DNA from: Alphaproteobacteria bacterium
GTDB lineage: Bacteria > Pseudomonadota > Alphaproteobacteria > Rhizobiales > Beijerinckiaceae
NCBI GenBank assembly: GCA_021325385.1
Contig: JAJPHH010000194.1
Span: forward strand, 1-46,046
DNA length: 46,046 nucleotides
Direction of reading: 5' to 3'
Shown here: in pieces, positions 22,605 through 42,485 of the stretch
How the letters are laid out: every line of letters starts with the position of its first letter
Numbering within the stretch: the first letter of the stretch is position 1
Position numbers and translations under genes: made by a program
Notes under the pieces: generated by a model
The model's database searches: none
What the model saw: only the letters and a program-made list of their open reading frames with translations
Told to the model about the DNA's origin: nothing

Positions 22605-23333
22605 CTAGGCGGCGCGCCACGCCGCATCACCGAGATCTCGCAGACGCCGCTGCGTCTTGAGAGGAAGTCCAGGCAAATTTTCGCCTAGCGGATCAAGACC
22701 CAAAGCGTTCATCTTCAAATAGAGCAATTTCGAACCTGCAGCGTTGGTTCTTTCATGCCATATCGTGGATCCTTCAAAAGCGATGAAATCGCCTCGCCGC
22801 GTGTCGATCACGAGCGGATCAATGTCTCTCAACGCGTTCTCCGGCCTCTCCGCCTCGGAAAGCGAGGCCAAGAAATCGTCATAGCTGTCAAATTTGTTTT
22901 CGGAACGCTGGTGGTACGGATAGAGGATAAGTCGAGAATCAGGCGCGACGTCGACACAAAAGCCAATGGCGAGTTGAGTCCCTCGTCTATCCTTGTGAGG
23001 CGGAGGGTTTTGTGGCGCGTCCTGCCGGTATACTTTGAGGTGCCTCTCGGAAACGATAAGCTCGTCCGCAGGGAGGCCGGTCAACTCGCCGACAGTCTCA
23101 ACAAGCTCCGCCACGAGTCGCTCCTCGTCGGGGAAATCAAAGAGAAATTCGTGCTTGAGACGTCTTTTCGAACGCGAAATATCGCCTGCGCGCATCGACG
23201 CCTCGATTCTCGCGTCAATATAATCCAGAAACTCCTCGCTGACGCCGTTCTTGACGACGACGAAATCGTTCTTCGAAAACTCCGCGGCATAGTCGCTCGC
23301 CACGAAATTGAATAGGCTCGTTGGAGTTTTCAT
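22605..23333 (-). CDS. 2-oxoglutarate/Fe(II)-dependent oxygenase-like protein
   Basis: A 242-aa protein with the metal triad of Fe(II)/2OG oxygenases: His113-x-Asp115 (PPHKDR) and a distal His193 (IWHERTN). Lys202 or Lys207 shortly after could bind the 2OG carboxylate. The fold around DTRRGDFIAFEGSTIWHER fits the double-stranded beta-helix. Such enzymes hydroxylate small molecules, amino acids or sugars. It is the last intact gene of the long minus-strand polysaccharide cluster, so a tailoring role on the cluster product is inferred. Subfamily not identified. Confidence 0.7.
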   Translation of the reverse strand: MKTPTSLFNFVASDYAAEFSKNDFVVVKNGVSEEFLDYIDARIEASMRAGDISRSKRRLKHEFLFDFPDEERLVAELVETVGELTGLPADELIVSERHLKVYRQDAPQNPPPHKDRRGTQLAIGFCVDVAPDSRLILYPYHQRSENKFDSYDDFLASLSEAERPENALRDIDPLVIDTRRGDFIAFEGSTIWHERTNAAGSKLLYLKMNALGLDPLGENLPGLPLKTQRRLRDLGDAAWRAA

Positions 23334-23520
23334 GACGCGGTCCTTTCCGACGATACATTCCCGGATGTTTGAGCTCGACTAAAGACGTAACGCAAGACAC
23401 GAGGAGCGGCGCGCGCTTTCGGCGTATTCTCCGGCCTTTGAGAGGCTAACCCGAAGGTGGTAACGAGGCTCGGCAGATATCAACTTATGCTCTCCCCACG
23501 GCCGTCTCTTGGGGCGTCTG

Positions 23521-24867
23521 TCATTCGTTTCGCAGTTCGACCGTCCCGAGCGGGTACCACGGGCCCTCGCCTTGAATAGCCAGGGCGATGTCGGGACTAT
23601 CGCGACGTGGCGGCGCCAGCCCAATTTGCACCGAATAACGACCCGGCGAAGATCCGTTCGTCCTGACCGTTAAATCGTCTCTCCGCTGGCCGGGAAGAAA
23701 CCCCTGCATCGTGATCCCGGAATCGATCACCTTCGGGCCGATCTTCACCAGCACATGACGGTCGAAATACATCGGCGCATTGCCGACGTTTTCCCAATCC
23801 AACTGAACATGGAGGTCGTCGCCGGCCTGCGCGACGATTGGCAGTGTCGCTCGCCTGAGCACAAATCGATAGCCGAGCTTGGCCAGCATGTTCCGAACAT
23901 CGGCAAGCATCTCCGCCGGAATGGGCGCGCTCTTGTTGCTTATTTCCGAAACATGGTTATCGACTGCCCATTGAAGCGCCTCCCTCCAAGGAGCGCCTTT
24001 CCTGATCCAGGTCGCCATGACGCCGCATGGCTCCATGATCACTGGCGCGATTCGCCAGGCCGCAGGAACGTCGGCAACGACCCGAGGGTACTTATAAGCC
24101 ATCTCGCGTCGCCCGCCCCAGCAATCCGCCCTCCAGCCGAGCCCGATCCGGATCGCTTCACGAAACGCTTCGCTGTCGTTCTCCCACATGCCGTCGTTCA
24201 CGATCGCCGGCTGTTCGAACTGCGCCTTGAACTGTTTGGCCAGCCACAATAACGTCTTCGAACTGGGATAAGGCGGCGCTGGATCGGTTCTCCAGAAATG
24301 CTGTTCGCCCCAGTCGCCGATCAATCCGACATCGACCGAATCAATTCCAGGATTGTGGCCAAAACGCTCGCCTAAAGCGGCGATAAAGCGCGCCAGATCT
24401 CGCTGGACATCGTCATCGTCCAGGTCCGGGAACCATGTCTCGACGCCGGCGAAATTAAAACTGAAGCCTCGGAAACCGGCTTTCCTGAGGCCCACCGGAC
24501 CGCCGTTCCCTTCCTCATAACCCATAATTCGGAAAGCGAGCCGCTGCCCCGCCGCCTGCGCGGCGCGAAGCGCTTCGTCGATTGGGGCAAACTTATAGAC
24601 GCCTGGGGCGGGCTCTACATCGCTCCAATCGACCCTGACATACATGGTGGACGATGGTATTTGGGCGTCGGTCGCGGCCGGTCGCGAAAATGTCTGATAG
24701 CCGACGCCAGGGTTCTTGATGACGCCCATGCACTCCACGGGACGAACCGTCTGTGTCTCGCTCGGCGCTGCATCCTGCCTGTCCGTCGCCAAAGCAAATC
24801 CGGCTACCGTCGCCGCCGCCAGAACTGCGCTCATCCGCCGCGACAGGCGCAATAAGATCGCTTGCAT
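23521..24867 (-). CDS. secreted DUF4832 protein with GH-like TIM-barrel fold
   Basis: A 448-aa protein from ATG 24867 (GGAAGG just upstream), with a signal peptide (SAVLAAATVAGFALA). The N-terminal two-thirds has the look of a (beta/alpha)8 glycoside hydrolase: NPGVGYQTF, TMYVRVDWSDVEPAPGVY, LAFRIMGYEE, VGLIGDWGEQHFW (a possible acid residue) and IVNDGMWEND. The C-terminal part (LHVQLDWENVGNAPMYFDRH to PGRYSVQIGL) is a beta-sandwich typical of DUF4832. It lies between an exporter and an oxygenase in the polysaccharide cluster, so it is probably a periplasmic or secreted glycan-processing enzyme. Catalytic residues are not proven. Confidence 0.75.
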   Translation of the reverse strand: MQAILLRLSRRMSAVLAAATVAGFALATDRQDAAPSETQTVRPVECMGVIKNPGVGYQTFSRPAATDAQIPSSTMYVRVDWSDVEPAPGVYKFAPIDEALRAAQAAGQRLAFRIMGYEEGNGGPVGLRKAGFRGFSFNFAGVETWFPDLDDDDVQRDLARFIAALGERFGHNPGIDSVDVGLIGDWGEQHFWRTDPAPPYPSSKTLLWLAKQFKAQFEQPAIVNDGMWENDSEAFREAIRIGLGWRADCWGGRREMAYKYPRVVADVPAAWRIAPVIMEPCGVMATWIRKGAPWREALQWAVDNHVSEISNKSAPIPAEMLADVRNMLAKLGYRFVLRRATLPIVAQAGDDLHVQLDWENVGNAPMYFDRHVLVKIGPKVIDSGITMQGFLPGQRRDDLTVRTNGSSPGRYSVQIGLAPPRRDSPDIALAIQGEGPWYPLGTVELRNE

Positions 24868-24953
24868 GGGACCTTCCGCCGCCGTCGTTCGAGAATGCCG
24901 CGGCCCGCGCAAAAGCGCGGGCCGCGGTTTCTTCCGAGCTTGAGATCGACGAC

Positions 24954-26405
24954 TTATTTATCGGCCGCCTTCGCGCTCAAAATCGCGCGTGACTCGGGCG
25001 ACTCGCTGCTTGCGCCCTTTATCTCGACTCGTTGATCCAGATCGCGTTGGTCTTCTTTGCGGCGATCCCGCTCGCCGCCGCTCCTTGTCAGATACTCCGA
25101 TGCGCCTCCCTCGCCGGCGAAGACTCTGACAAGGTCGCCTGGCTGCAGCAGGCAGGACCCGTAAACCCTGTATATTGTGGCTCGACCGTTCGTCCGGCGG
25201 ACGAGATTATATGTAAGCGGCGCCGCGCCGGGCGTATTCGGATTGGCGTCGATTAGGCTTACCGTCGCGAGATGAGATCGATACACGATGCCCTGCTGGG
25301 CGATCTGGAGCTCCAAGTCCGAGATTTCGTGTTGGAGGGCGAATCGCGCGTCGAGCTTGAGTCTCGTCAAGTTGGCCTGAGCATCGCTTATCTGCATCTG
25401 GGTTTGCTGAATTCCGACCGCCACTTCCTGTTTTTTGAGCAAGGAATCCAAATACTCGGCCTGCGCTATTTCGAACACAGCTTCGCTGAGGCGCCCGCTG
25501 GAGGTCAGCGTTTCCAGGTTTTTGACCCTCTGGCGCCTTCGCTCGATCGCTGCGTCGATGGTCTCCACTTGGCTTTTTCGGACATTTAGCGTCTGTTTGG
25601 CGCCGTCTATGAGTTGCATTTGCTGCTGCTGCTGGGCGGCGTTGGACGCCAGAACGGTTTCCCGCTCGGCGGTTTGCGCGGCGATCAACTCCTTAGCCCG
25701 AATTTCTCCGGAAAGGTCGATCAGGGTCGCCGGCGTCGCCACCGGGACGGCGGCTAATTCGGCCCGAAGCACGGCGTCTCGCGCCAGGAGACGTTCAAGC
25801 GTCTGCTTCGCCTGTTCGCCGGTGCCGGCTTCCTGCATCGTCTGGAATAACACCTGGTGGGATTCCAGTTTGATATCCTCGTACCCTCCGGCAAGGCTGA
25901 CTGCGTGTTGGGCCGTCAGTCCGGGCGTATATTTGTAGGCGCCCGGATTCTTGACCAACCCGTCAACATAGATCGGCTGGTGCTCGGCTATCGCGATCGT
26001 GATGACGCCTACATGCCCCAATGTGGACTCGAACGCGGCGCTGATCGCGTTGCGAAGCTCCGCCATCGATTTTCCAGCCGCTTTGAATTGGCCGAGGATC
26101 GGGACAGAAATCGTTCCGTCTTCCGCGATTTCGAAATCGCCGCTTACCTCGGCGCGCAGCCGATAACTTGGATAGGCGTTCTTGGCCGGCATTCGATCGA
26201 GTTGGTCCGGGTCAATTCGCTCGTATTCCGTCAAGGTGATCCTGTCGCCCGCTCTAAACCGCGCGGCGCCGCCATCGTCCATCGAACAGATCGCGCTGTC
26301 TGGCGAGGCCATGGACGGGGCGGCGTCCTGTCCAAACGCAGAATGTACGGAAGCCGCCGTGGCGGCCACGGTCAGGCAAGCAGCGATGTTGAACCAGGTT
26401 TTCAT
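24954..26405 (-). CDS. ExoF-like polysaccharide export protein (OPX family)
   Basis: A 483-aa protein with a signal peptide (FNIAACLTVAATAASVHSAF) and no lipobox Cys. The Poly_export domain (FRAGDRITLTEYERID, EDGTISVPILGQFKAAGKS) is followed by an SLBB-like segment (IYVDGLVKNPGAYKYTPGLT). A long coiled-coil runs over about residues 200-370 (Gln/Ala/Leu-rich, including QQQQQMQLIDGAKQ), then a second SLBB-like segment. This arrangement matches ExoF-type exporters of rhizobial exopolysaccharide, which span the periplasm. GAGGG lies about 8 nt before the ATG. No Wzc-type co-polymerase is visible nearby. Confidence 0.87.
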   Translation of the reverse strand: MKTWFNIAACLTVAATAASVHSAFGQDAAPSMASPDSAICSMDDGGAARFRAGDRITLTEYERIDPDQLDRMPAKNAYPSYRLRAEVSGDFEIAEDGTISVPILGQFKAAGKSMAELRNAISAAFESTLGHVGVITIAIAEHQPIYVDGLVKNPGAYKYTPGLTAQHAVSLAGGYEDIKLESHQVLFQTMQEAGTGEQAKQTLERLLARDAVLRAELAAVPVATPATLIDLSGEIRAKELIAAQTAERETVLASNAAQQQQQMQLIDGAKQTLNVRKSQVETIDAAIERRRQRVKNLETLTSSGRLSEAVFEIAQAEYLDSLLKKQEVAVGIQQTQMQISDAQANLTRLKLDARFALQHEISDLELQIAQQGIVYRSHLATVSLIDANPNTPGAAPLTYNLVRRTNGRATIYRVYGSCLLQPGDLVRVFAGEGGASEYLTRSGGERDRRKEDQRDLDQRVEIKGASSESPESRAILSAKAADK

Positions 26406-26477
26406 GTCGGAACCCTCGCGGTTACGGGTTGACGAATGCCAAGTCTTCTGCGCCCCTATTCTGGAATGCGGCGCTGT

Positions 26478-27839
26478 TCATGGAGGTGCGGCGCCAAGTT
26501 GAGCGCGTCCTTTCGGTCCGGACGGTCGTCGTCCGAGTAAAGAACGTGCCTGCCCTGCATGAGTTGAAACAAATTCGTCCAGCTGGTGTGGAGGCGGCGC
26601 TTCCCTGCGGCCGTCATGCGCCAGGGCAAGATCCAGCCGCGCCGCGACCTGATTGAGAAATTCCTTCGTCGTTAGCCAAGGCTGGTTCGGGCCTATAAGC
26701 TGCGCAAGATCCCTCGTCATCATTCCGGCGCCGACAGTTTCCCGGCACGCGCGCTCCAACTCCATAGCGAAGCGCTGCAAATATGAATCCTCATCGAGCT
26801 TCGCGCGATGCGCGAGGCCTCGACTCCATGCGAAGATGGAGGCGATCGGATTCGACGAGACCGCCTTGCCGGCCTGATATTCCCGGTAATGTCTTGTCAT
26901 TGTCCCGTGGGCGGCTTCAGTCATGACGACAGCTCCGCCTCGCGCGACCAGAATGGAGGTCATGAGGCCGAGCGACCCGAATCCCTGCGCCACGAAATCG
27001 GACTGCACGTCGCCGTCATAATTCTTACACGCCCACACAAAGCCGCCTTCGCCTTTAAGCGCGGTCGCGACCATTTCGTCGATGAGGCGGTGCTCGTACG
27101 TCAGCCCTTCCCGCTCGTAGTCCACCTTGAACTGTTCGTCGAACACATCTTGGAAGATTTTCTTGAATCGTTCGTCATACAGCTTCAGGACGGTGTTTTT
27201 AGTCGAAAAGACCACCGGCAACCCTCGTTGGAGGCCGTATCTCAGGCAGGTCTGGGCATATTCGCGGAAGCTTTCATCCAGATTGTAAATGGCGAGCGCG
27301 ACGCCCGGACCAGGGTAATCAAACACGGTTCGCTCGAGACTTATCGCCTTGCCGTTAGCGTCATTGCCGTCGAAGCGTAGAGTCAATTTACCTGGCCCGG
27401 GCACAGCCAGCTCGGCGGCGCTGTAGAAATCGCCAAATCCGTGGCGAGCAACCACGATCGGTTTGGTCCATCGCCGCACCAGCGTTGGCGCGCCTGGGCA
27501 AAGGACCGGCTCTCGAAAAATAACGCCGCCGATAACGGCGCGAATTGAGCCGTTGCACGACTTGAGCGGATGACTCAGCGATAGTTCGAGCCTCTTCGCG
27601 GCATCCGGGTTGATCGTCGCGCACTTGATTCCAACTCCGGCCCGAAGGATTGCATGCGCCGCCTCCAAGGTGACCGCGTCGCCGGTGCGGTCCCGATGAG
27701 AAACGCTGAGGTCGTAGGTCTCGATGGGGATGTCGAGATGAGGCTCAATCAGGAGGGATCTGATGTCCTTCCAGATCACTCCGGCCATCTCGTCGCCTTC
27801 AAGATTAACGACAGGATGACGAACCTTTATCTTGGCCAT
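26478..27839 (-). CDS. icd: NADP-dependent isocitrate dehydrogenase paralog
   Basis: A 453-aa homodimeric-type NADP-IDH (isocitrate to 2-oxoglutarate, CO2 and NADPH). Catalytic elements are kept: KSCNGSIR (human KSPNGTIR), FREP, the Arg of ARHGFGD, GDFY, STKNT, LIDEM, YDGDVQSD, and the NADP-binding GTMTRHYR. It is more divergent than housekeeping copies and has a C-terminal extension of about 45 residues rich in Pro, Arg and Gly, against a usual length near 405. GGAGG precedes the ATG by 6 nt, and the start overlaps the stop of the upstream ATP-grasp gene (TGATG). Its place in a polysaccharide operon suggests a dedicated metabolic role rather than TCA-cycle duty. Confidence 0.88.
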   Translation of the reverse strand: MAKIKVRHPVVNLEGDEMAGVIWKDIRSLLIEPHLDIPIETYDLSVSHRDRTGDAVTLEAAHAILRAGVGIKCATINPDAAKRLELSLSHPLKSCNGSIRAVIGGVIFREPVLCPGAPTLVRRWTKPIVVARHGFGDFYSAAELAVPGPGKLTLRFDGNDANGKAISLERTVFDYPGPGVALAIYNLDESFREYAQTCLRYGLQRGLPVVFSTKNTVLKLYDERFKKIFQDVFDEQFKVDYEREGLTYEHRLIDEMVATALKGEGGFVWACKNYDGDVQSDFVAQGFGSLGLMTSILVARGGAVVMTEAAHGTMTRHYREYQAGKAVSSNPIASIFAWSRGLAHRAKLDEDSYLQRFAMELERACRETVGAGMMTRDLAQLIGPNQPWLTTKEFLNQVAARLDLALAHDGRREAPPPHQLDEFVSTHAGQARSLLGRRPSGPKGRAQLGAAPP

Positions 27840-28987
27840 CAAAGTCCTCCGCGTGCATTTTGAGCCAACGCGGCGCGGCTTTCGCCGCGCAAACCCAAGC
27901 AGACTGTCAGAATCTTCTCGGCGATCAGAGTTTCGCGCCCTTCCAAGTGATGGTAATAGAGGTTCGGCCGCGCGTTGACTTCCAGAATCGCGCCGCCGCT
28001 CGTCGTGAGCGGCAGCGAGGGATCGCGGCAGATCAGGTCGACGCCGGCGAGCCGCAGACCGACCGATTCGGCGGCTGTCCGCGCGGCGGCGATAATCTCC
28101 GGACAAAGTACGGAATCGGCCGGCTCATTCTCCTGGATCGCGTTCTCGTTGACGATCTGCTTGAGGCGAACGACGACGCCTGCGCCGGGTCGCGACCACA
28201 GTGTGTAACTTTGGCGAGCCAGCGTGTTAACGAGGTCCCTATCAGTCACGATCATGACTTGTGAGCGACGCGCGCCTTCCCTGACGCGCCTGAGGTTCTC
28301 TTTGCGCAACAGCTTCCGAATTGTCGACTTGCCGTCGCCGATGACGGTGGGAGGGCGCCGACGAATACTGTCGAGGGGTTCGCCGTCCAGCAGAAGAATC
28401 CGATAGCAGTCGCCCTCGATCTGCTGCTCGATCAGAATCTTTCTTCGAAAGGTGCGCGCCCAGGCCATGGCCGCCCGCAACTGCTTCTCGGTAACGACAT
28501 TCGTCGTCACGCCGCAGCCGCCGCCGGTGAAGGCCATCGGCTTGACCACAAGCGGCGAGCCGCAGGAGCGTAGGAAGGATAGCGCTTGCTCGAACTCGTC
28601 GATTGTCGCGACAATGTAACGGGGGGTCGGAATTCCTGCTTGGGTGAGCAGACGATGGACGAGCAGCTTGTCGCCGGCTCGTCTGACCGCGGAAGGATCG
28701 TCGACATAGGTCTCGTTATCGCGCGCCTTCAAGCTCTTGCCGTCTCGCGACATCTCCATCTCGCCGTCGCGTCCGATCGCCAGTTTCACTCCGGTGGCTT
28801 CGCAGGCGCTTCGCCACATGGCCCGATAAAAGCCTACACGGGCCGCCCACATCCGCCGCACGCCGGTATTGGCGCGACTGAAAGCGAGGCGCCGCAGCCT
28901 GAACCACGCGCTCAGCGCAAGCATCGGCAAGGAGGCGCAGGATTGCGGAGCGGACGCGATTTTCATTGAAGCGAATGTCAAGGCCAT
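27839..28987 (-). CDS. ATP-grasp ligase, cyanophycin-synthetase-like
   Basis: A 382-aa carboxylate-amine ligase. The ATP-grasp core shows PLVVKPMAFTGGGCGVTTNV, then ILIEQQIEGDCYRILLLDGE, then the CphA-type signature RRPPTVIGDGKSTIRKLL, and a metal-binding end AILEVNARPNLYYHH. The CphA glutamate-ligase (Mur) half is missing, so it is a stand-alone ATP-grasp enzyme. I chose ATG 28987, which follows the upstream stop by only 4 bp; the ATG at 29086 overlaps that gene and looks non-coding. It is coupled to the IDH gene (1-bp overlap) and is likely to form an amide or ester bond on an amino-acid-like substrate. Confidence 0.8.
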   Translation of the reverse strand: MALTFASMKIASAPQSCASLPMLALSAWFRLRRLAFSRANTGVRRMWAARVGFYRAMWRSACEATGVKLAIGRDGEMEMSRDGKSLKARDNETYVDDPSAVRRAGDKLLVHRLLTQAGIPTPRYIVATIDEFEQALSFLRSCGSPLVVKPMAFTGGGCGVTTNVVTEKQLRAAMAWARTFRRKILIEQQIEGDCYRILLLDGEPLDSIRRRPPTVIGDGKSTIRKLLRKENLRRVREGARRSQVMIVTDRDLVNTLARQSYTLWSRPGAGVVVRLKQIVNENAIQENEPADSVLCPEIIAAARTAAESVGLRLAGVDLICRDPSLPLTTSGGAILEVNARPNLYYHHLEGRETLIAEKILTVCLGLRGESRAALAQNARGGL

Positions 28988-28991
28988 CCCC

Positions 28992-30302
28992 CTATGGCTT
29001 GATCCGGCCGACCAATTGCGGAATTTCACCATCGCCGCCGCGATAGGACGATCGTTTGAAGAGCAGTCTTCCCGCCGCGACCGCAAGGTTCATCACGCTA
29101 TGGAGCCCCGGAAGCGGATCGCGCATATCGTAAAGCGGAGTTATGTCCGCACGCGCCGCTTGTCGAATCCATTGAGCGAAAGCGAGCTCGCCGCGCGAAT
29201 GCAGCGCGCGAAACGCCAGAAAGTCAGGGATAGGATCCCACATGACCAATCCGGTGCGGTACTTCTCGGGCGCCGCGTAAGGCCATCCCGTGAGCTGTGC
29301 ATAGCTCAGGAGCGCTTGGTCGATTCCGCTCAGCGTCACCAGCGCATTTCCGTTGACGTATCGCGCGTTGACTTCGATCAGCTTCAACTCGCCATCGCGA
29401 GCGTCCCGTTTAAATTCGACGTTGCCAAGTCCGCGCAGCCCTACATGGCGAAACAGCCGCAGCCCTTTTTCCGCGACCTCGGGATTCCAGTCGGTTATAT
29501 GGTAAGTGGCCCCGCCCTCATTCGTCGGATGCCGTCGCAGCAGGCGCTTGGTGAAGTGGAAGAGCGGCGTTCCGGCTTCGTCGATATAGGTATAGTAGCT
29601 GCAATAGCGCTCATCGCCGCCCGGAATGAATTCTAAGGCGACGACGGGAACGCTCAGCTCGACGCATCTTTGATATTGGCGTTTAAGCTCCTCCGCATTG
29701 TTCGCCCGAAGATATTTGGCCCCGATCAGGCGGGAATGCTGCGATAGTCGCGGCTTTAGAATGATCGGAAATTGACCGGTCTGAATCACCTCGCCGAGGC
29801 TTTGGCCAGCCCCCAATCGCCAGAATTTCGGATGCGCAATTCCGCACGCGCTGGCGCTTTCATAGGTCAGGAGCTTATCAAGAAGGCGAAACCGTGTTTC
29901 AGGGGCGGCCGGCTCCAGGAGATAACGGGCCGAAAGGGGCCGCCAATTGTCGATGACGAGCTTGATGGCCTCGTCGCTGCAACAAAAGACCGCCGACCCT
30001 TTGAGATGATCAGACGCCGATGAAAGAAGATAGTCTCGCCACGACTCCACGCCACGAGTTCTGGTTGGAAGGTCGATCCGCGTAAGATATTTCGATCGCA
30101 GGGCCGACACGTAGTTGTGGTTGATCGCATAGACTTTAATGCCGACCATCGCCAAACTGCGCGCCACGGAAAACGTGTTGCCCTCGCCGCCGAGCAGAAT
30201 GACGGGCGGCCACGACCGGCTATCAATCGCCCGGCCGGAAGGCGACGGCGAAGTCGGGTCGCCCGCCCACTCTGGCTGCCGTGCTTTCGCCGCTATGGCC
30301 AC
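28992..30302 (-). CDS. ATP-grasp ligase, CPSase-L-like
   Basis: A 436-aa protein with an N-terminal Rossmann-like segment (PVILLGGEGNTFSVARSLAM), a central ATP-grasp region (LKPRLSQHSRL) and LKLIEVNARYVNGNALVTL as the metal-binding end. It belongs to stand-alone ATP-grasp enzymes related to carbamoyl-phosphate synthase large chains and to amino acid ligases. The start is GTG 30302 with GGAGG about 9 nt upstream. It lies 4 bp upstream of the second ATP-grasp gene. The two probably act in sequence on one product. Substrate unknown. Confidence 0.8.
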   Translation of the reverse strand: MAIAAKARQPEWAGDPTSPSPSGRAIDSRSWPPVILLGGEGNTFSVARSLAMVGIKVYAINHNYVSALRSKYLTRIDLPTRTRGVESWRDYLLSSASDHLKGSAVFCCSDEAIKLVIDNWRPLSARYLLEPAAPETRFRLLDKLLTYESASACGIAHPKFWRLGAGQSLGEVIQTGQFPIILKPRLSQHSRLIGAKYLRANNAEELKRQYQRCVELSVPVVALEFIPGGDERYCSYYTYIDEAGTPLFHFTKRLLRRHPTNEGGATYHITDWNPEVAEKGLRLFRHVGLRGLGNVEFKRDARDGELKLIEVNARYVNGNALVTLSGIDQALLSYAQLTGWPYAAPEKYRTGLVMWDPIPDFLAFRALHSRGELAFAQWIRQAARADITPLYDMRDPLPGLHSVMNLAVAAGRLLFKRSSYRGGDGEIPQLVGRIKP

Positions 30303-30356
30303 TGCTGCACCCTCCGAGCATACGATTGTCGAACCAACAACCGCCTTTTTCGACCC

Positions 30357-31109
30357 TCAAGCAATTGCGCAACCTTCTCTGGTCAGCAATTGATCGACCC
30401 AGGCATTCGAAAATACGCCGACCTTGACGTTGGCAAGGTACGCTGCCGATCGCTCCTTCGCGGCAAGCAGCCGCGCATGCGCCTCAACTATATGGTCTCG
30501 AGGCACGACCACGACGCCGCCCGCGTCGGCTACGATAATGTCGCCGGGCGAGACGACGATGCCGCCGCAGCAGATAGGAAAGTTGATTTCGCCCGGCCCT
30601 CGATGCAGCGGGCCAATCATGTTCTCGCCTCGGGCGTAGACCGGAAAATCGAGCGATCGAATGGCCGACGCATCCCGAACGTAGCCGTCGACCACGAAGC
30701 CCGCGATTCCGCGGTGCCTAGCCTTGGTGCTGATGATGTCGCCAAGCACCGCATTTTTTATAGAGCCGCCGGCGTCGACGACGACCACGTCTCCCGGCTT
30801 GGCGACGTCGAGCGCCTTGTGCACCATGAGGTTGTCGCCCGGAAAGACTTTGACGGTGCAGGCAGGCCCGATCAGCGGGCGATCAGGGCCGGCGATGCGG
30901 CGTATCGAACTTTCGACCCCGTACAACCGATTGAGCTGGTCCGAAATGTCCGCGCTCGAAAACTCGGAGAACATCTCGACGACGTCCATGTTGGGACGAG
31001 GAAGATGCAGGCATATCCGAAACCCGGGACCCGGATGAATCTCGGCGGATTGCGGCCGTTGCTTCATCGGCTCGTCGCTTTGCTTGATGAGGCCGTTGAC
31101 GTCGTTCAT
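30357..31109 (-). CDS. RraA/HMG-aldolase family protein
   Basis: A 250-aa protein of the RraA-like fold. The key stretch GDIISTKARHRGIAGFVVDG followed by YVRD has the conserved Arg-Asp pair that in class II HMG/CHA aldolases binds substrate and metal. An extra N-terminus of about 35 residues precedes the domain. Family activities are 4-hydroxy-4-methyl-2-oxoglutarate aldolase and oxaloacetate decarboxylase; other members regulate RNase E. The aldolase residues and the neighbouring IDH and ligases favour keto-acid chemistry. The ATG overlaps the flippase stop by 4 bp. Confidence 0.8.
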   Translation of the reverse strand: MNDVNGLIKQSDEPMKQRPQSAEIHPGPGFRICLHLPRPNMDVVEMFSEFSSADISDQLNRLYGVESSIRRIAGPDRPLIGPACTVKVFPGDNLMVHKALDVAKPGDVVVVDAGGSIKNAVLGDIISTKARHRGIAGFVVDGYVRDASAIRSLDFPVYARGENMIGPLHRGPGEINFPICCGGIVVSPGDIIVADAGGVVVVPRDHIVEAHARLLAAKERSAAYLANVKVGVFSNAWVDQLLTREGCAIA

Positions 31110-32704
31110 CGCAAGACCCTCGCCTGCTTGGTATCAACGAACGGGGCGATCCTTTTCCCGCTCGCTGTCGGTTTTGATTGTGCGGATAAAAACGAAGGCG
31201 ACGCCGCATCCTGAACATCGATAACTTCCACCGGCCGCTCTCCAGCCGTCGCGCTCGGCGTCTTGAGCCGGCCGAACGCGGCGCGCGCAAACGACCAGGC
31301 GCCGAATTTCTCGTCACGAACGCGCCGCCAAATCGTCGGCCAAAGGCACGCCGCCTCGAGCGCCATAGCAAGGAGCCACCCCGTGGTCGCGCCGAGCAGG
31401 CCATAGAGCTCCGCTCCGATTGTGGCGAACAGTATCTCGATTGCGCCTAGCGCGCCGAGCATGAACGCTGCTGAACGCGCTCTGTTTTCGAGTCGCTGCA
31501 CGGTCATGTAATGAACTTTGACCGCCATGAGCGGGACGCTCGCGCCGAGGAAACGCAGATCCGAGCCGACGAGGTTGGAATAAGCGGGATTCAATATTTT
31601 GAGCGCTGTATCGGAGAGCAGCCAGAACCCGAATGCGGCGATCACGCCGATTGCGATCGAAATGGCGAGCGAAAACCGGATGCTTGCCGCTGTTTCCGAC
31701 CGGCCCTCGGCCCCGACGGTGAATAGGACTGTCGCCAATGCGGCCGGAACGACTCCTGCCAAAGTCAACAACATCCAAGCGGCGTAAAACGGCGCAGTCT
31801 GTTCCGCTGAAACAACTGAGGCGATCACCACGGGCAGGATGAGCGTCGGCGCGGTCGCCATGACGTTCAGCGCATAATACCAAAGCGCAACGCCCATGCG
31901 CTGCCATAACAAATCGAACCTTGGACGGTACCAGATTCTAGAGCCGCCGAGCCAAAGCATGCCGGCTAGAGCAAGGGAGGCCCCGCCCTGTCCGATGACC
32001 CAAGAGGCGATAATAAGGTCTAGTTGCCAGCCTTCCGGCACGACGGCGGCTGCGATGCCGATGATGAAGAGCAGTTTCGCAACAGCAAACAAAAGATTCC
32101 TTAAAAGGCGCAGCGGCGCACTCAACATGCCGACCAGGGCCGAGTCGAGAACGCTGCTTGCGGTCTGCACGCCGACGCCGATGACGAGAATGCAGCGAGT
32201 GGAGGAAAAGCCCGCCACGTCGCCTATGCTCGGCGCGAACGTCGCCGCCAAAGCCGCCAACACGACATAGGCAATGCCGAGAAGGCAGGCGATCGCCAGC
32301 GAAGCCAGGAGCGCCGCCGAGACAAGATGCGGCGCTAATCTTCGCCGACGGGGAATTTCGCCCTGCAATAGGGTGCCCAGGCCGAAATCCGCGGCCAGGC
32401 TCAGGAGCATCATTAGGGAAATGTCAGCGGACGCCAGGCCGACCGCCGCGGGCGTGAAGGATCTCGCCGCGACCCACCAATAGACGAAACCAAAGGCGCC
32501 GTTGGCCATCGTCGCAGCGGCCAGCGCGCCGGCGTTAAACGTAAGCGCGAAATGGGTCCCGAGCGCTCGCTGGGCGTGGTATAGCGGCGACCGCCAATCG
32601 TCAAAATCTATCGGTCTGGGGCGCGCAAGACCGCGGTCTGAGGAACGCGCCGCCCTGGCGTCGTCGACCGTACCGCAATCTGCTTGGTCGCCTCTATGAC
32701 GCAT
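31106..32704 (-). CDS. polysaccharide flippase (Wzx/MATE-like membrane protein)
   Basis: A 532-aa protein with 12-14 hydrophobic segments, starting with FNAGALAAATMANGAFGFVY and an early FTPAAVGLASADISLMM motif typical of polysaccharide transporter (PST/MOP) proteins. The N-terminal 45 residues and the last 60 are hydrophilic. It would translocate lipid-linked repeat units across the inner membrane. The long N-terminal tail is suspicious and the true start may be further in. It lies between the DUF1616-like gene and the RraA-like gene, to which it is coupled. Confidence 0.82.
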   Translation of the reverse strand: MRHRGDQADCGTVDDARAARSSDRGLARPRPIDFDDWRSPLYHAQRALGTHFALTFNAGALAAATMANGAFGFVYWWVAARSFTPAAVGLASADISLMMLLSLAADFGLGTLLQGEIPRRRRLAPHLVSAALLASLAIACLLGIAYVVLAALAATFAPSIGDVAGFSSTRCILVIGVGVQTASSVLDSALVGMLSAPLRLLRNLLFAVAKLLFIIGIAAAVVPEGWQLDLIIASWVIGQGGASLALAGMLWLGGSRIWYRPRFDLLWQRMGVALWYYALNVMATAPTLILPVVIASVVSAEQTAPFYAAWMLLTLAGVVPAALATVLFTVGAEGRSETAASIRFSLAISIAIGVIAAFGFWLLSDTALKILNPAYSNLVGSDLRFLGASVPLMAVKVHYMTVQRLENRARSAAFMLGALGAIEILFATIGAELYGLLGATTGWLLAMALEAACLWPTIWRRVRDEKFGAWSFARAAFGRLKTPSATAGERPVEVIDVQDAASPSFLSAQSKPTASGKRIAPFVDTKQARVLR

Positions 32705-32758
32705 TCATTCCTCGCAAATGTCTGAAAGGAAGCTCGCTCGATAATTGCGTCGTCCGGG

Positions 32759-33667
32759 TCAAAGCCCGCATGGCGGCCTCCCGCGCGAGTCGTCATGCGT
32801 GACGCATTGCGGCGCGCTCCAGACGTGCCGGTATACGACCGACCGGTCGCTTGTTCGGTAGACGAGGGCCTCGACGCGCGGGCTCGCGCCGAGCGCGACG
32901 CGCTCGGAAGCCATCACTCGCGGCGCCTCTGGGGCAGGATCAGTTTGCCAGAGGGGCCTGAGGTCGCGCGGATATTGACCGAGACCGAGCCAGCTAAAGG
33001 TTGTAGTCCATGTCCGCCCCGGCTGCAGCGTGATGTCGGTCCACGATTGAACGAGATGCCGGTCGACAAGCAGCTCGATCGCGTAACTCTGCTGGCCCTC
33101 TTCCTCGTTGCGCAGGCCAATGACGACGCTATCGGCGGCTTTCTGGTTTGGAACGATCCAGGCCTGGGTAAAATAGAATTGGCGATGCTGCAGCATGACC
33201 GCCACTGCCAGTCCCAAACCGATCGCCGCCAGACCTAACGCCGAAGCCATCGTCGAAATATCGCCAGGCCGATAATAGGCCCGGCGCCTTTCGGCCCGCA
33301 CGACGACAGAAAGACTTCCAGATGACGCCCGCCGCTCGGCGACAGCCCAGACGATCCATGCCGCCGAGACTATGATCCCCAGTGAGATGAGCCATCCCGG
33401 TCTGGTGATCTGGCCCGCGAGATGGAGGATGAGGCCAGCGATGATCACGATCGAGAGGCTGATCGCCACACTGAGCACGGTCGACGCCAGCCGATCTTCC
33501 GGTTCTGCGCGAGCGGCGCGCAATACCGCTCGGCCCGGCAGGTAAAACAGCAGAGGTACGGCCGCCGCCACATCGAGCAGCGGATTGCGGATCCAAAGCA
33601 GAATCCCAAGACAGAGGAGCGACGCCGCGGCGCAACCGCCGGGAGAGCGACGGTCACTTGACGACAT
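32759..33667 (-). CDS. DUF1616-like membrane protein
   Basis: A 302-aa protein. Four or five hydrophobic segments in the first 170 residues include VAAAVPLLFYLPGRAVLRAA, close to the opening of DUF1616 proteins. A soluble C-terminal part follows (VVIGLRNEEEGQQSYAIELL, then LQPGRTWTTTF), which looks like an extracytoplasmic beta-sandwich. ATG 33667 has AGGAG about 9 nt upstream and overlaps the GT-C-like gene by 14 bp; an ATG at 33694 is less likely. Proteins of this type often neighbour glycan assembly genes. Function unknown. Confidence 0.72.
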   Translation of the reverse strand: MSSSDRRSPGGCAAASLLCLGILLWIRNPLLDVAAAVPLLFYLPGRAVLRAARAEPEDRLASTVLSVAISLSIVIIAGLILHLAGQITRPGWLISLGIIVSAAWIVWAVAERRASSGSLSVVVRAERRRAYYRPGDISTMASALGLAAIGLGLAVAVMLQHRQFYFTQAWIVPNQKAADSVVIGLRNEEEGQQSYAIELLVDRHLVQSWTDITLQPGRTWTTTFSWLGLGQYPRDLRPLWQTDPAPEAPRVMASERVALGASPRVEALVYRTSDRSVVYRHVWSAPQCVTHDDSRGRPPCGL

Positions 33668-35834
33668 TGCGCAAGACTCCTGCGTCGTAATCAATCAGAG
33701 GGCGCTCGCTGGGCTTGCCCTGAGCAGTTGCGCGTCGATCTAGCCTAGTCGTCTTGGTGAGCGTGGCGGCTCCGCCGACCTGCGGCGCGGGGCCCGGCGC
33801 ATTGGCGTCGTAAACCACCGGATGGCCGCCGCGGAACGTTCTGCCGACCCATGCCGCGCTATCGACTTTCTCGGCGAGCGGCGGCGGGCTGTTCAGTCGT
33901 TCGGGTTCGAGTAGGTTTCGAACGTCGTAAATGACCTCGAAGCCGTTATCGTAGATTCGCCCCACTCTAGGGAGCTCGTCGAATTTCTGCAGATCGACCG
34001 CCAGCGGCGGAGACTTGTGCAGCTCGCTGTCTTCGCCAGCCTCGAAATAGAAACCCCATAGCGGCAGGTCATGTTGAAGGCGCAGATCGACCAGGAGGAA
34101 ATCGGGGTCTCCCTCACGAATCAAATTCTTGTCGAAGTCTGCGAGACGGCGCGACCTCGTATTCATGTCGAACAGCGCCTGGTCGAACAGCACCGAGCCA
34201 AGCTCCACGCCGTCCTCTTGCGGGGTCACCACCCTCTGGACGCCATAGGTCGCCAGGAGCAATTTGTTTGCGCGATCGGAGGCGAAGCGCCAGCCCTCTC
34301 CGAGCTCATCTCGAGTCCATTGCGCCGTGGAGATGCCCATCGGCTCGACCGAGCTTCCGTCGGCAGCAGGACGATACGGGCCGGCGACCAAGTCCGGCGG
34401 CAATTCCGCAATCACGCCGCCGACGATCATGATCGCCAGGCACAAGCCGAAGGCGGCGGCCCGTAACGGACGGGCCCGCGGGGTGATCAGCACCTTCGCC
34501 GCTCCCATAGCGACGACCAGGCCAACGCCGAGAAAGACGAAGGCCGACATTCGATTTCCCAATTCCCAGCTGCCTCCCGTCAGCCGAAGCGCGACGCTCA
34601 CGGGAAAACCGAAACTCATGATCGTCAGAACAATCGCCCAGACATTATCGCGCATGCCTAGGAACGGTTTCTCTGGAGCTGCGCCTCGATCGCCGCGCAA
34701 GCCCAACGATCTGAAAAACCCTACGACCAGTCCGGCTGAGATGAGTATGACGGAGAGAATGGCCATGGCCCTATAGGCCGCCGGCTGAACGGCGCCCGTT
34801 GCGGACACAAAAAACGAGCGTCCTCCGCTCAATCCGGCCAACAGACCGTAGAAAGTGGCTACCGATCCGCCGAGAATCTTTCCAAGGTAAGGATTGGCCG
34901 CTCCTCCCGTAAGCCATTTCCACAGGCCGGCGCTCACGACGGCGACGCCCGCGATGGCGGTCGTCGCGCCGGCGCCTTTCCTGTCGCCGCGAAAGAATGT
35001 GGCCGCCGCCGCGGCGCTCAAAGTGATTAATCCGAAATATGATGAAAGATGATGGCTGACCGCCGCGGCGCACAAGATCAGGCCGCAGATCCAAACCATA
35101 CGCCACCGATCGCGCACCGCTCCACGACCGATGAGCACGGCAATGAAAATTGCCACAAACACCAAGTCAAGGGCGAGCGTTTCGTAGGAGAACGCTGCAA
35201 GGAACGTATAAAAATTGCTGCTCGCCATGTATACGAGCGTCGCCAGCGCCCCGACCCAAGAAGACGCGGAGATCTTCTCGAAGATCAGAAAAATGACAGA
35301 TACGCACAGCATCCGCAGGACGCCGACCAGAATGACGGCGCATGGGAAAACACCAAGGTCGGTTAGCTGCGCCAACGCCGACGTGACGATCTCCAGCCCA
35401 GGGTAGTAAGGGCTTACCGGCAGAAGGGAATTAGCGGTGAATAGATGATGCCGCTCCAGAATGTCGATTGTCGTCGACCAGTGCAGATATTCATCGTGGC
35501 CATAGAAATGAGTGGGACTCTCCAATATTCTCGTCATGAAGAGGCTGGCGCCGAGGATATTGAGCAGCCAGATCCGCTCCCGACGCGAGACATTCGGCCA
35601 AGCGATGCGCAGCACGACCGGTAGAGTAATCAGGGCGAAGCAGGCCCAAAATAGAGCAGCGCCATAAGTCCAGCCGTTCAACGACAGGCTGCTCGCCGTC
35701 GCATCGAGGACAAGCGCCGCCGCTGAGGCGAGCATCAACCTAGGCGCCCAGCCGAGGCTCTCGACCGGATTGACACAGTCATACCCTTGGCGGTCGCATC
35801 CATAGCCCAACCACCGAAACAGCGTCGCAATCAT
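33654..35834 (-). CDS. large polytopic membrane protein, GT-C-like
   Basis: A 726-aa protein with about 12 hydrophobic segments in the first 500 residues and a soluble C-terminal domain of about 220 residues. The first large loop carries ESPTHFYGHDEYLHWSTTID, and the acidic HDEYLHW is like the catalytic loop of GT-C enzymes; SPYYPGLEIVTSAL follows. The combination suggests a polyprenyl-linked sugar transferase or polymerase. No specific family is recognised. It precedes and overlaps the DUF1616-like gene. Confidence 0.65.
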   Translation of the reverse strand: MIATLFRWLGYGCDRQGYDCVNPVESLGWAPRLMLASAAALVLDATASSLSLNGWTYGAALFWACFALITLPVVLRIAWPNVSRRERIWLLNILGASLFMTRILESPTHFYGHDEYLHWSTTIDILERHHLFTANSLLPVSPYYPGLEIVTSALAQLTDLGVFPCAVILVGVLRMLCVSVIFLIFEKISASSWVGALATLVYMASSNFYTFLAAFSYETLALDLVFVAIFIAVLIGRGAVRDRWRMVWICGLILCAAAVSHHLSSYFGLITLSAAAAATFFRGDRKGAGATTAIAGVAVVSAGLWKWLTGGAANPYLGKILGGSVATFYGLLAGLSGGRSFFVSATGAVQPAAYRAMAILSVILISAGLVVGFFRSLGLRGDRGAAPEKPFLGMRDNVWAIVLTIMSFGFPVSVALRLTGGSWELGNRMSAFVFLGVGLVVAMGAAKVLITPRARPLRAAAFGLCLAIMIVGGVIAELPPDLVAGPYRPAADGSSVEPMGISTAQWTRDELGEGWRFASDRANKLLLATYGVQRVVTPQEDGVELGSVLFDQALFDMNTRSRRLADFDKNLIREGDPDFLLVDLRLQHDLPLWGFYFEAGEDSELHKSPPLAVDLQKFDELPRVGRIYDNGFEVIYDVRNLLEPERLNSPPPLAEKVDSAAWVGRTFRGGHPVVYDANAPGPAPQVGGAATLTKTTRLDRRATAQGKPSERPLIDYDAGVLRNVVK

Positions 35835-35919
35835 GGGTGCCCGGCCATGTCGCTGGAACGTTCACGTCGCGTCGCGGCCGAGCGCCCGCTCGCGACGAGA
35901 AGGCCTGCAAGCTCGGACC

Positions 35920-36741
35920 TCATTGGAGCGACACCCGCGGATACACTCCGGCAAGACGTTGCGACAGGATGGTCTTGAGAACGCGCCATCCATCGGGAAA
36001 CGCGCGCAGATTACTGACCCCATGCACCCGCTCGGCCTCGCAACTCGCGACCTCCATGATTTTGAGGCCGTGGGACAGAGCCCGCACGCAGAGCATCGTC
36101 TCGATCTCGAAACCGTCGCATGCGCTTTCAAGCACAGGCAGCGTACGTCTCCAGAAGGCCATGTAGCCGTAACATAGATCGGTAAACCGGCAGCCATAAA
36201 GCATGCGCACCGATGTCGTCAGCGCCCAATTGCCGAGCGCGCGGATGAACGACAGATCCGTGCTGCCGCCGCCTTCGATATAACGAGAGCCTTTAGCGAG
36301 ATCGGCGCCGGCCAAGAGAGCGCCGATGAGCAGGATCATTTCATCCGGATTCATCGAACCGTCCGCGTCGATCATGACGATGACGTCGCCCGTGGCGCGG
36401 GCAAAACCAGCTCGCAACGCGGCGCCTTTGCCGCGCCGGCTTTCGATGACGATCCGTACATCGGGATAAAGTCGTCGGGCGACGTCGACTGTCTCATCGG
36501 TCGAAAGGCCGTCGACAATGATCAACTCGTGTATCCAACGAGGCATTCTCGGCAACACGAGAGCCAAATTGGCCGCTTCGTTGAAAGTCGGCATGACGAC
36601 GCTGACTCGCGGGATGGGAACGTGCAGTTGATCCTCTATCAACGGTCCATTCGCTTCATCTTCCGATCTATCGCTGTGCACGGCTATCGAGGTTCGTCGA
36701 GGCAGGTCATGACGCGCCAACTCGGCAACTTGTTCGACCAT
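35920..36741 (-). CDS. GT2 family glycosyltransferase (DPM1-like)
   Basis: A 273-aa enzyme with a GT-A fold: SVVMPTFNEAANLALVL, LIIVDGLSTDETVDVA, the donor-metal motif IDADGSMNP and KGSRYIEGG. No C-terminal membrane domain. It resembles dolichol-phosphate mannosyltransferase-like and UDP-glucose transferring GT2 enzymes. I chose ATG 36741 (GAGGGCG about 8 nt upstream) over ATG 36927, whose additional 62 residues look non-coding. It probably begins the minus-strand cluster, with a divergent methyltransferase beyond. Confidence 0.87.
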   Translation of the reverse strand: MVEQVAELARHDLPRRTSIAVHSDRSEDEANGPLIEDQLHVPIPRVSVVMPTFNEAANLALVLPRMPRWIHELIIVDGLSTDETVDVARRLYPDVRIVIESRRGKGAALRAGFARATGDVIVMIDADGSMNPDEMILLIGALLAGADLAKGSRYIEGGGSTDLSFIRALGNWALTTSVRMLYGCRFTDLCYGYMAFWRRTLPVLESACDGFEIETMLCVRALSHGLKIMEVASCEAERVHGVSNLRAFPDGWRVLKTILSQRLAGVYPRVSLQ

Positions 36742-42140: not shown

Positions 42141-42485
42141 AATTTGGCACAGATTGGCGCTTGTTCGCCACGGACGGCTGAACGCGAACGACCGGGCAGA
42201 TGAAGAAGGACGACGCCATGCGCGAGCCGGCTCCGACGCAGAATGTCGTGGGCCATTCGATGGCTGTAGAATACGAGCCGCCTACCCCATTGCCCGGATG
42301 GCGGCCGTGCGGTCGAAGCCTGACGAGAGACGTCTACCCGGAGCGAGAGCGATCATGAGACGCAACAAAAGGCTAGTCGATTCCGGGCCATGAAAACTGC
42401 CGCGTCAAGGCCGATGGCCACCATAGACGCTGCAGAACCTGCTTGCGGGGGAGCAACGGTTAGGTCGACGAAGGAGCGACTGTCG
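41929..42485. other. poorly coding gap before GINT1-like gene
   Basis: The 557-bp gap holds the small frame at 41925-42140 and the GGGTAATCC motif at 42064-42072. Frames in 42154-42485 run into the next gene but show no clear coding character. Confidence 0.4.

What the first reader, a model, noticed from the sequence alone, without database searches (positions are those of the whole stretch)
22605..36741. Polysaccharide operon with built-in keto-acid and ligase chemistry
Seen: ten closely spaced or overlapping minus-strand genes plus a terminal oxygenase combine GT2, GT-C-like, DUF1616-like, flippase, RraA-like, two stand-alone ATP-grasp ligases, NADP-IDH, ExoF-like exporter, secreted DUF4832 protein and 2OG/Fe(II) oxygenase. 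Known: ATP-grasp enzymes join a carboxylate to an amine, RraA-type aldolases and IDH handle 2-oxo acids, and 2OG oxygenases consume 2-oxoglutarate. Inference: the locus makes an exported glycan or glycopeptide decorated with an amino or keto acid produced inside the cluster. I know of no described system with this set.
Basis: partly seen in the sequence, partly recalled or inferred. Interest (0 to 1): 0.78.

Follow-up and report, generated by a model that had tools for sequence, protein, structure and literature searches.

The report
Portable acid-ligase cassette in glycan locus
A small set of enzymes that seems to make an organic-acid building block and join it to something with two ATP-driven ligases travels as a unit across many bacterial phyla, and here it sits inside a surface-sugar operon, which points to an undescribed way of decorating bacterial surface polymers.

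Summary
The eleven genes are there, but in two layers. The glycan layer (GT2, GT-C-like, DUF1616-like, putative flippase, ExoF-like, and more genes up to 44-45 kb) occurs in three relatives without any metabolic gene. The metabolic layer, RraA-like aldolase (RRAA) plus two ATP-grasp proteins (AG1, AG2), is a conserved cassette lying between flippase and ExoF. In 397 genomes of the order, AG1, AG2 and RRAA searches each single out nearly the same 13-14 other genomes. Of 87 loci with AG1 relatives, 80 also hold RRAA or AG2 (54 both), in eight named phyla plus KSB1. A dehydrogenase slot holds Ldh_2 (35 of 87) or a DUF1932 enzyme (24), never both; relatives of the window's oxygenase are in 20. The window's IDH is a diverged extra paralog in that place; different Iso_dh-family enzymes lie near AG1 in four actinobacteria. 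DUF4832 was found in no other locus. No held paper contains both 'ATP-grasp' and 'RraA'; a key 2009 survey was not held. Product inferred, not shown: a hydroxy-/oxo-acid unit joined by amide or ester bond, probably decorating the exported glycan.

The parts
30357..31109 (-). RRAA: RraA-fold class II pyruvate aldolase/decarboxylase candidate; cassette core
   Evidence: PF03737 1.3e-48; N93, H97, R145, D146 invariant and D124 in at least 90% of 52 homologs, aligned with the HMG/CHA aldolase 3noj; in 64 of 87 AG1 loci
28992..30302 (-). AG1: stand-alone ATP-grasp ligase; cassette core
   Evidence: PF15632 just under its cut-off, CPSase_L_D2 over it; K143, K183, E296, E310, N312, R314 invariant in 65 homologs
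27839..28987 (-). AG2: stand-alone ATP-grasp ligase like the ATP-grasp domain of cyanophycin and NAGGN synthetases; cassette core (start 28987 or 28966)
   Evidence: NCBIfam hits far below equivalog cut-offs; K142, E180, N331 invariant, K100, D310, E329 in at least 90% of 60 homologs; in 70 of 87 AG1 loci
26478..27839 (-). IDH: extra, diverged NADP-isocitrate-dehydrogenase paralog in the cassette's dehydrogenase place
   Evidence: PRK08299 577 bits; start overlaps the AG2 stop; 61 of 250 conserved canonical columns differ, T77N among them
22605..23333 (-). OXY: Fe(II)/2OG-type oxygenase candidate, accessory cassette member, 187 bases after DUF4832
   Evidence: HxD...H invariant in 18; relatives in 20 of 87 loci; no Pfam hit over cut-off
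24954..26405 (-). ExoF-like outer-membrane export protein, glycan layer
   Evidence: PF02563 + PF10531; present in cassette-free loci L170-L172
31106..32704 (-). WZX: putative glycan flippase, glycan layer
   Evidence: homologs at 62, 38 and 29% (best segments) in cassette-free glycan loci L170-L172; no library hit
32759..33667 (-). DUF1616-like membrane protein, glycan layer
   Evidence: homologs in L170 and L171, weak in L172; DUF1616 only at E 0.13
33654..35834 (-). GT-C-like membrane protein, glycan layer
   Evidence: homologs in G005, G026, G036 of 59 other relatives
35920..36741 (-). GT2 glycosyltransferase, glycan layer
   Evidence: PF00535; 79, 60 and 64% in L170, L171, L172
38227..39501 (-). 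GT4 glycosyltransferase, glycan layer outside the finding
   Evidence: PF00534; homologs in L170-L172
39802..40791 (+). second GT2, glycan layer outside the finding
   Evidence: PF00535; homologs in L170-L172
40813..41928 (+). second GT4, glycan layer outside the finding
   Evidence: PF13439/PF00534; homologs in L170-L172
42390..44111 (+). GINT1_N-domain protein, glycan layer
   Evidence: PF24793; homologs in L170-L172 and in 11 of 87 cassette loci
23521..24867 (-). DUF4832 protein; next to the cassette, link not supported
   Evidence: PF16116; no hit in 102 other loci
24898..24927 (-). 13-bp G+C-rich hairpin with TTTT loop after ExoF, possible transcript end
   Evidence: read by eye in the sequence printed; not in the terminator list (no T run after it)

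Best explanation
The window is an exported-glycan locus that carries a portable biosynthetic cassette: RRAA-AG1-AG2 with a dehydrogenase (here a re-purposed NADP-IDH paralog) and a 2OG-type oxygenase. Shown: the cassette's conservation as a unit, its place between flippase and exporter genes of a glycan locus that exists without it in relatives, kept catalytic motifs, and its usual glycan surroundings. Inferred: RRAA makes or cleaves a pyruvate-derived 2-oxo acid; the dehydrogenase interconverts it with a malate-like 2-hydroxy acid; AG1 and AG2 activate carboxylates with ATP and join them by amide or ester bonds to an amino acid or amino sugar; the oxygenase hydroxylates the unit; flippase and exporter send the decorated glycan out.
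For: Reciprocal searches in 397 genomes: AG1 stands apart in 13 other genomes, AG2 in 14 (all 13 among them), RRAA in 14 (12 of the 13, plus two with AG2 beside it at a contig end). In 87 AG1 loci AG2 is in 70 and RRAA in 64 (54 both, 80 either); AG1-AG2 median gap -4 bases. Distance matrices correlate, r 0.84, 0.62, 0.64. Cassette genes in 0 of 20 control regions; glycan-type genes in 36 of 45 long cassette loci against 1 of 20 controls. Cassette-free glycan locus in three genomes. Ldh_2 and DUF1932 enzymes exclude each other (35, 24, both 0 of 87); window AG1 lies inside the DUF1932 clade while that enzyme was not found in its genome. Iso_dh-family enzymes near AG1 in four actinobacteria. 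Motifs kept.
Against: No product or substrate is known. Some cassettes stand with only a flippase and no glycosyltransferase nearby, so the product may not be on a glycan. 32 of 87 loci have no glycan-type gene within four genes. AG2 is missing in 17 and RRAA in 23 of 87 loci, some of them cut short by contig ends; same-family bearers lack AG2 and OXY nearby. The cassette's G+C (0.587-0.622) does not differ from the glycan genes, so nothing marks a recent insertion. The window IDH passes the ordinary NADP-IDH cut-off and may simply make 2-oxoglutarate.
Confidence: 0.5

Rival explanations
1. The cassette makes a small exported pseudo-peptide or depsipeptide (metallophore, osmolyte or signal) that is not bound to a glycan; a flippase-type protein exports it.
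For: Cassettes RRAA-AG2-AG1-Ldh_2-flippase with no recognisable glycosyltransferase next to them (L068-L073; L122, L129, L144, L145).
Against: Glycan-type genes are strongly enriched around cassettes in general, and in the window the cassette is inside a glycan operon.
Confidence: 0.25
2. The IDH is only a supplier of 2-oxoglutarate (for the oxygenase) or NADPH and not a step of the cassette pathway.
For: It passes the NADP-IDH equivalog cut-off and keeps the residues for the alpha- and beta-carboxylates; no close homolog in other cassettes.
Against: The genome has a canonical IDH too; T77, which faces the gamma-carboxylate, and its loop are changed (PMC10302481, passages); it takes the place of a slot filled by other dehydrogenases elsewhere.
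Confidence: 0.3
3. Chance neighbours: unrelated metabolic genes that happen to lie in a glycan operon.
For: The glycan locus exists without them in three genomes; IDH and DUF4832 do not recur with it.
Against: RRAA, AG1 and AG2 stay together in independent searches and across phyla, and were in none of 20 control regions.
Confidence: 0.03

Closest known systems
VanHAX logic: 2-hydroxy-acid dehydrogenase + ATP-grasp ligase (system recalled; VanA chains seen)
   Same: A dehydrogenase and an ATP-grasp ligase encoded together; the best PDB matches of the AG1 profile are VanA chains (3se7, E 5.6e-10), over the ATP-binding part only
   Different: No match outside that part; other dehydrogenase families; an aldolase and a second ligase; glycan surroundings instead of peptidoglycan genes
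Cyanophycin synthetase / N-acetylglutaminylglutamine synthetase / GshF ATP-grasp domain
   Same: AG2 profile matches these ATP-grasp domains in PDB chains (8fxh 6.4e-55, 7lgm 4.3e-52, 3ln6 5.4e-43)
   Different: AG2 is a stand-alone protein, 161 bits against 850-877 needed, and pairs with AG1
HMG/CHA aldolase and other RraA-fold enzymes
   Same: Active-site residues kept; RraA-fold enzymes act on 2-oxo acids (PMC5065237, PMC8563752, passages)
   Different: Under the equivalog cut-offs for LigK-type aldolase and RNase E regulator; over the PRK06201 subfamily cut-off, a family without a function
Wzx/Wza-type polysaccharide loci
   Same: Glycosyltransferases, putative flippase, Poly_export/SLBB protein
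   Different: Carries the acid-ligase cassette between flippase and exporter; three cassette-free counterparts found

Membership tests
RraA-fold class II pyruvate aldolase | Active-site N, H, R, D residues of HMG/CHA aldolase (N71, H75, R123 seen in PMC5065237 passages; roles of D102 and D124 recalled) | tested here: met
   N93, H97, R145, D146 invariant, D124 in at least 90% of 52
RraA-fold class II pyruvate aldolase | Aldolase or decarboxylase activity | not testable with these tools
   needs enzyme assay
LigK-type HMG/CHA aldolase | NCBIfam equivalog cut-off | tested here: not met
   142.1 against 179 and 129.3 against 304.5 bits
RNase E regulator RraA | NCBIfam equivalog cut-off | tested here: not met
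   97 against 136 bits
ATP-grasp ligases (AG1, AG2) | Conserved lysines and carboxylate/Asn metal site (roles recalled) | tested here: met
   AG1 K143, K183, E310, N312 invariant in 65; AG2 K142, N331 invariant, K100 and E329 in at least 90% of 60
Cyanophycin synthetase | Full-length equivalog match (about 860 positions) | tested here: not met
   161.3 against 850 bits, one stretch
N-acetylglutaminylglutamine synthetase | NCBIfam equivalog cut-off | tested here: not met
   119 against 569 bits
D-Ala--D-Lac ligase (VanA) | NCBIfam equivalog cut-off | tested here: not met
   AG2 28.1 against 550 bits; AG1 not listed at E 1e-3
NADP-isocitrate dehydrogenase | NCBIfam equivalog cut-off | tested here: met
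   577.2 against 335 bits
NADP-isocitrate dehydrogenase | All substrate-contact residues of IDH1 (T77, S94, N96, R100, R109, R132, Y139) | tested here: not met
   T77 is N; the others kept (PMC10302481 and PMC12200840, passages). So: works like an IDH-fold dehydrogenase, isocitrate as substrate not shown
Fe(II)/2OG oxygenase | HxD...H facial triad | tested here: met
   H113, D115, H193 invariant in 18
Fe(II)/2OG oxygenase | Curated family match | tested here: not met
   no Pfam or NCBIfam hit over cut-off, no PDB sequence at E 1
Polysaccharide export protein | Poly_export and SLBB domains over cut-off | tested here: met
   35.7 against 28 and 27.9 against 27 bits
Wzx/MOP flippase | Curated family match | tested here: not met
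   no Pfam hit at E 1, no BLASTP similarity to one Pfam-positive flippase; the name stays putative

The most novel reading that the evidence does not exclude
A so far undescribed, multi-phylum biosynthetic cassette (pyruvate-type aldolase, interchangeable NAD(P) dehydrogenase, two ATP-grasp ligases, 2OG-type oxygenase) builds a hydroxy-acid/amino-acid unit in the cell and installs it on exported glycans, a (depsi)peptide-like decoration made without carrier proteins; in the window a TCA-cycle enzyme has been recruited as its dehydrogenase.
Probability: 0.4. Interest if true: 0.8.

Novelty: new variant of a known kind. Interest (0 to 1): 0.65.

Why it matters
If true, many bacteria (at least 525 stretches encode AG1 relatives in one collection; how many carry the whole cassette was counted only for the 87 loci) hold an unrecognised pathway for acid decoration of surface polymers. 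The exchange of Ldh_2, DUF1932 and perhaps IDH-type enzymes in one slot narrows its substrate to a malate-like 2-hydroxy/2-oxo acid, which can be tested directly with purified enzymes.

Tried and rejected
Chance neighbours: rejected for RRAA-AG1-AG2. One single system including ExoF, GT-C-like and DUF1616-like proteins: rejected, these occur without the cassette. DUF4832 as a cassette part: no hit in 102 loci. RNase E regulator for RRAA, whole cyanophycin or NAGGN synthetase for AG2: cut-offs not met. Plasmid searches gave only distant ATP-grasp proteins (AG1 80 records, AG2 121 records, all under 60% identity). The first genome-contig scan with the window AG1 alone found nothing; the profile scan did. 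Promoter/terminator scan: uninformative. Base composition: no sign of a recent insertion.

Papers: ten searches. Four gave no paper, among them 'ATP-grasp' with 'RraA' (31). One search found 28 papers, 15 listed, one holding all five terms; its ATP-grasp mention is a reference title (PMC10945688, passages). PMC12419801: ATP-grasp only in another context (passages). PMC11641403: rraA is only a locus boundary (passages). The other papers of those lists were seen as listings only. Iyer et al. 2009, a survey of ATP-grasp amidoligase neighbourhoods, is not held, so prior description there is not excluded.

Rows dropped and biases: the 87-locus table is the 80 loci plus L064-L066 and L074-L077; L067-L073 were left out. 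G194 counts twice (L064, L065). Many loci are cut by contig ends; for the 54 with at least 5 kb on both sides the counts within six genes are AG2 42, RRAA 41, Ldh_2 24, DUF1932 16, OXY 17. Glycan-type clusters were named by Pfam on one representative or by eye, were defined on the cassette loci themselves, and the 20 controls come from one order, which flatters that contrast. Ldh_2/DUF1932 labels follow the AG1 tree, so the exclusivity probability (6.9e-6) ignores relatedness. P. eucalypti (L134) has both an Ldh_2 and an Iso_dh enzyme; P. acaciae (L125) shows AG1 and Iso_dh but no RRAA or AG2 and a very long AG1 branch.
Full report
Observation. The eleven minus-strand genes of 22605-36741 are open frames at the stated places. 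Library models support GT2, DUF4832, the export protein, NADP-IDH, RraA-like and both ATP-grasp proteins. WZX/RRAA and AG2/IDH overlap, so RRAA-AG1-AG2-IDH is very probably co-transcribed with the flippase gene upstream. A 13-bp hairpin follows ExoF.

Two layers. The GT-C-like protein was found in 4 of 60 relatives, the window's genome and three others. In G005 (same genus), G026 (same family) and G036 (another family) it lies among homologs of GT2, both GT4s, the DUF1616-like protein (weak in G036), the flippase, the second GT2, ExoF and the GINT1_N protein; RRAA, AG1, AG2, IDH, DUF4832 and OXY gave no hit in those 19.9-kb stretches. AG1 was not found elsewhere in these three genomes either. 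So the glycan locus reaches beyond the finding, to about 44-45 kb, and the cassette lies between flippase and ExoF as an addition. Base composition does not set the cassette apart, so the addition is not visibly recent.

The cassette. The other half of that test failed. In 397 genomes of the order (the window's included), AG1 has some match in 73, but 13 besides the window's stand apart at E <= 2.6e-65, the next being 1.1e-34. AG2 matches 102 at E <= 1e-20, but 14 others stand apart at E <= 1.3e-43, the next being 1.6e-32; all 13 AG1 genomes are among them. RRAA matches 35 at E <= 1e-50, but 14 others stand apart at E <= 2e-73, the next being 5e-54; 12 are AG1 genomes, the two others (G091, G148) have AG2 beside RRAA at a contig end, and G194 is missing. 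Fisher for AG1/AG2: 13, 0, 1, 382; p = 1.8e-23 (relatedness ignored). Of the 13 nearest AG1 loci of the order, 11 have RRAA and AG2 within about 1.5 kb and L035 and L036 do not; of 16 more distant ones (L048-L063) none does.

Wider. In GTDB species genomes at least 525 stretches encode AG1 relatives, of which the best 80 were kept. In 87 loci, AG2 is in 70, RRAA in 64, both in 54, either in 80; the seven without either are L065, L082, L109, L112, L125, L135, L150. RRAA or AG2 accompanies AG1 in Pseudomonadota, Planctomycetota, Actinomycetota, Myxococcota, Acidobacteriota, Ignavibacteriota, Calditrichota, Gemmatimonadota and KSB1; the one Chloroflexota locus (5.2 kb) shows AG1 and Ldh_2 only. 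Calditrichota and KSB1 show AG1-AG2 without RRAA in the stretch held. AG2 and AG1 mostly overlap (median gap -4; 65 of 70 within 3 kb); RRAA is within 3 kb in 63 of 64. Distance matrices: AG1-AG2 r 0.84 (69 loci), AG1-RRAA 0.62 (59), AG2-RRAA 0.64 (53), each 0 of 999 permutations (shared ancestry contributes). Cassette genes were in 0 of 20 control regions.

The dehydrogenase slot. Ldh_2 (PF02615) is in 35 of 87 loci and a 6PGDH-like DUF1932 enzyme in 24, never both; on the AG1 tree these labels need 3 changes against 18.6 in shuffles. The window's AG1 lies inside the DUF1932 clade (100/98), sister to Methylocystis sp. Sn-Cys (98/91). That enzyme was not found in the window's genome (one query, which the tool warns is weak without a positive control). 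In the own family 4 of 396 other genomes carry AG1, all of one genus, with RRAA and the DUF1932 enzyme nearby but no AG2 or OXY in the 19.9 kb held. In the window an IDH follows AG2 with an overlap instead. It is an extra paralog: the canonical IDH lies in two pieces at contig ends, and none of 59 other relatives has a second close copy (two have one gene in two pieces). It differs at 61 of 250 columns conserved in canonical IDHs of relatives. T77, which faces the gamma-carboxylate (PMC10302481, passages), is Asn, with P95C and T98S nearby, while S94, N96, R100, R109, R132 and Y139 are kept. No close relative lies in the other loci. But another branch of the Iso_dh family lies near AG1 in Geodermatophilus sabuli, Blastococcus endophyticus, Pseudonocardia acaciae (starting at the AG1 stop) and P. 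eucalypti: 4 of 98 loci, 0 of 20 controls, all under every NCBIfam equivalog cut-off listed. That contrast is small, P. eucalypti also has Ldh_2, and P. acaciae shows no RRAA or AG2, so repeated recruitment of IDH-type enzymes is likely rather than shown. What Ldh_2, 6PGDH-like and Iso_dh enzymes share is redox chemistry on malate-like hydroxy acids (recalled), which fits a 2-oxo-acid aldolase.

Catalytic state. RRAA keeps N93, H97, R145 and D146 in all 52 and D124 in at least 90%. AG1 keeps its lysines and metal site in all 65, AG2 in all or at least 90% of 60 (roles recalled). OXY keeps HxD...H in 18. Activity is expected, not shown.

Surroundings. 55 of 87 loci have a glycan-type gene within four genes; of loci of at least 19 kb, 36 of 45 against 1 of 20 controls (with the biases told under Tried and rejected). 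FemAB/GNAT-type proteins are in 17 of 87 (one of the five clusters named by eye). Some cassettes stand with a flippase alone, which keeps the small-molecule rival alive.

Verdict. New is the cassette: widespread, coherent, with an exchangeable dehydrogenase, and not met in the papers searched (open-licence PubMed Central only, and the most relevant older survey not held). What it makes is unproven.

Noticed in passing
24898-24927: Perfect 13-bp G+C-rich hairpin with a TTTT loop between ExoF and DUF4832, without a following T run.
   Followed up: no
42390-44111: Protein with a GINT1_N domain (plant glucosamine inositolphosphorylceramide transferase N-terminal part), found in all three cassette-free glycan loci and in 11 of 87 cassette loci.
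   Followed up: partly
44458-45198; also L085, L171, L198-L201: LuxR-type regulator at the end of the glycan locus; homologs also lie near the RRAA-AG1-DUF1932 cassettes of the own-family genus and in G026.
   Followed up: no
L064, L065 (G194): Genome with three AG1 copies, two of them adjacent with AG2 and Ldh_2, and no close RRAA.
   Followed up: no
L094, L101, L105, L107, L110, L111: AG1-AG2 pairs without RRAA or dehydrogenase in the held stretch, in Calditrichota, KSB1 and a deltaproteobacterial MAG; MBOAT-type acyltransferase genes lie near four of them.
   Followed up: partly
L125:12247-13407, L134:14232-15389: FemAB-like proteins directly after the Iso_dh enzymes of Pseudonocardia, with a MurJ-like protein next to it in L134.
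   Followed up: partly
37086-38159: Plus-strand methyltransferase inside the glycan region without a homolog in the three cassette-free loci.
   Followed up: no
22605-23333: Lowest G+C of the genes measured (0.543) and a sub-threshold match to the 2OG halogenase WelO5.
   Followed up: no
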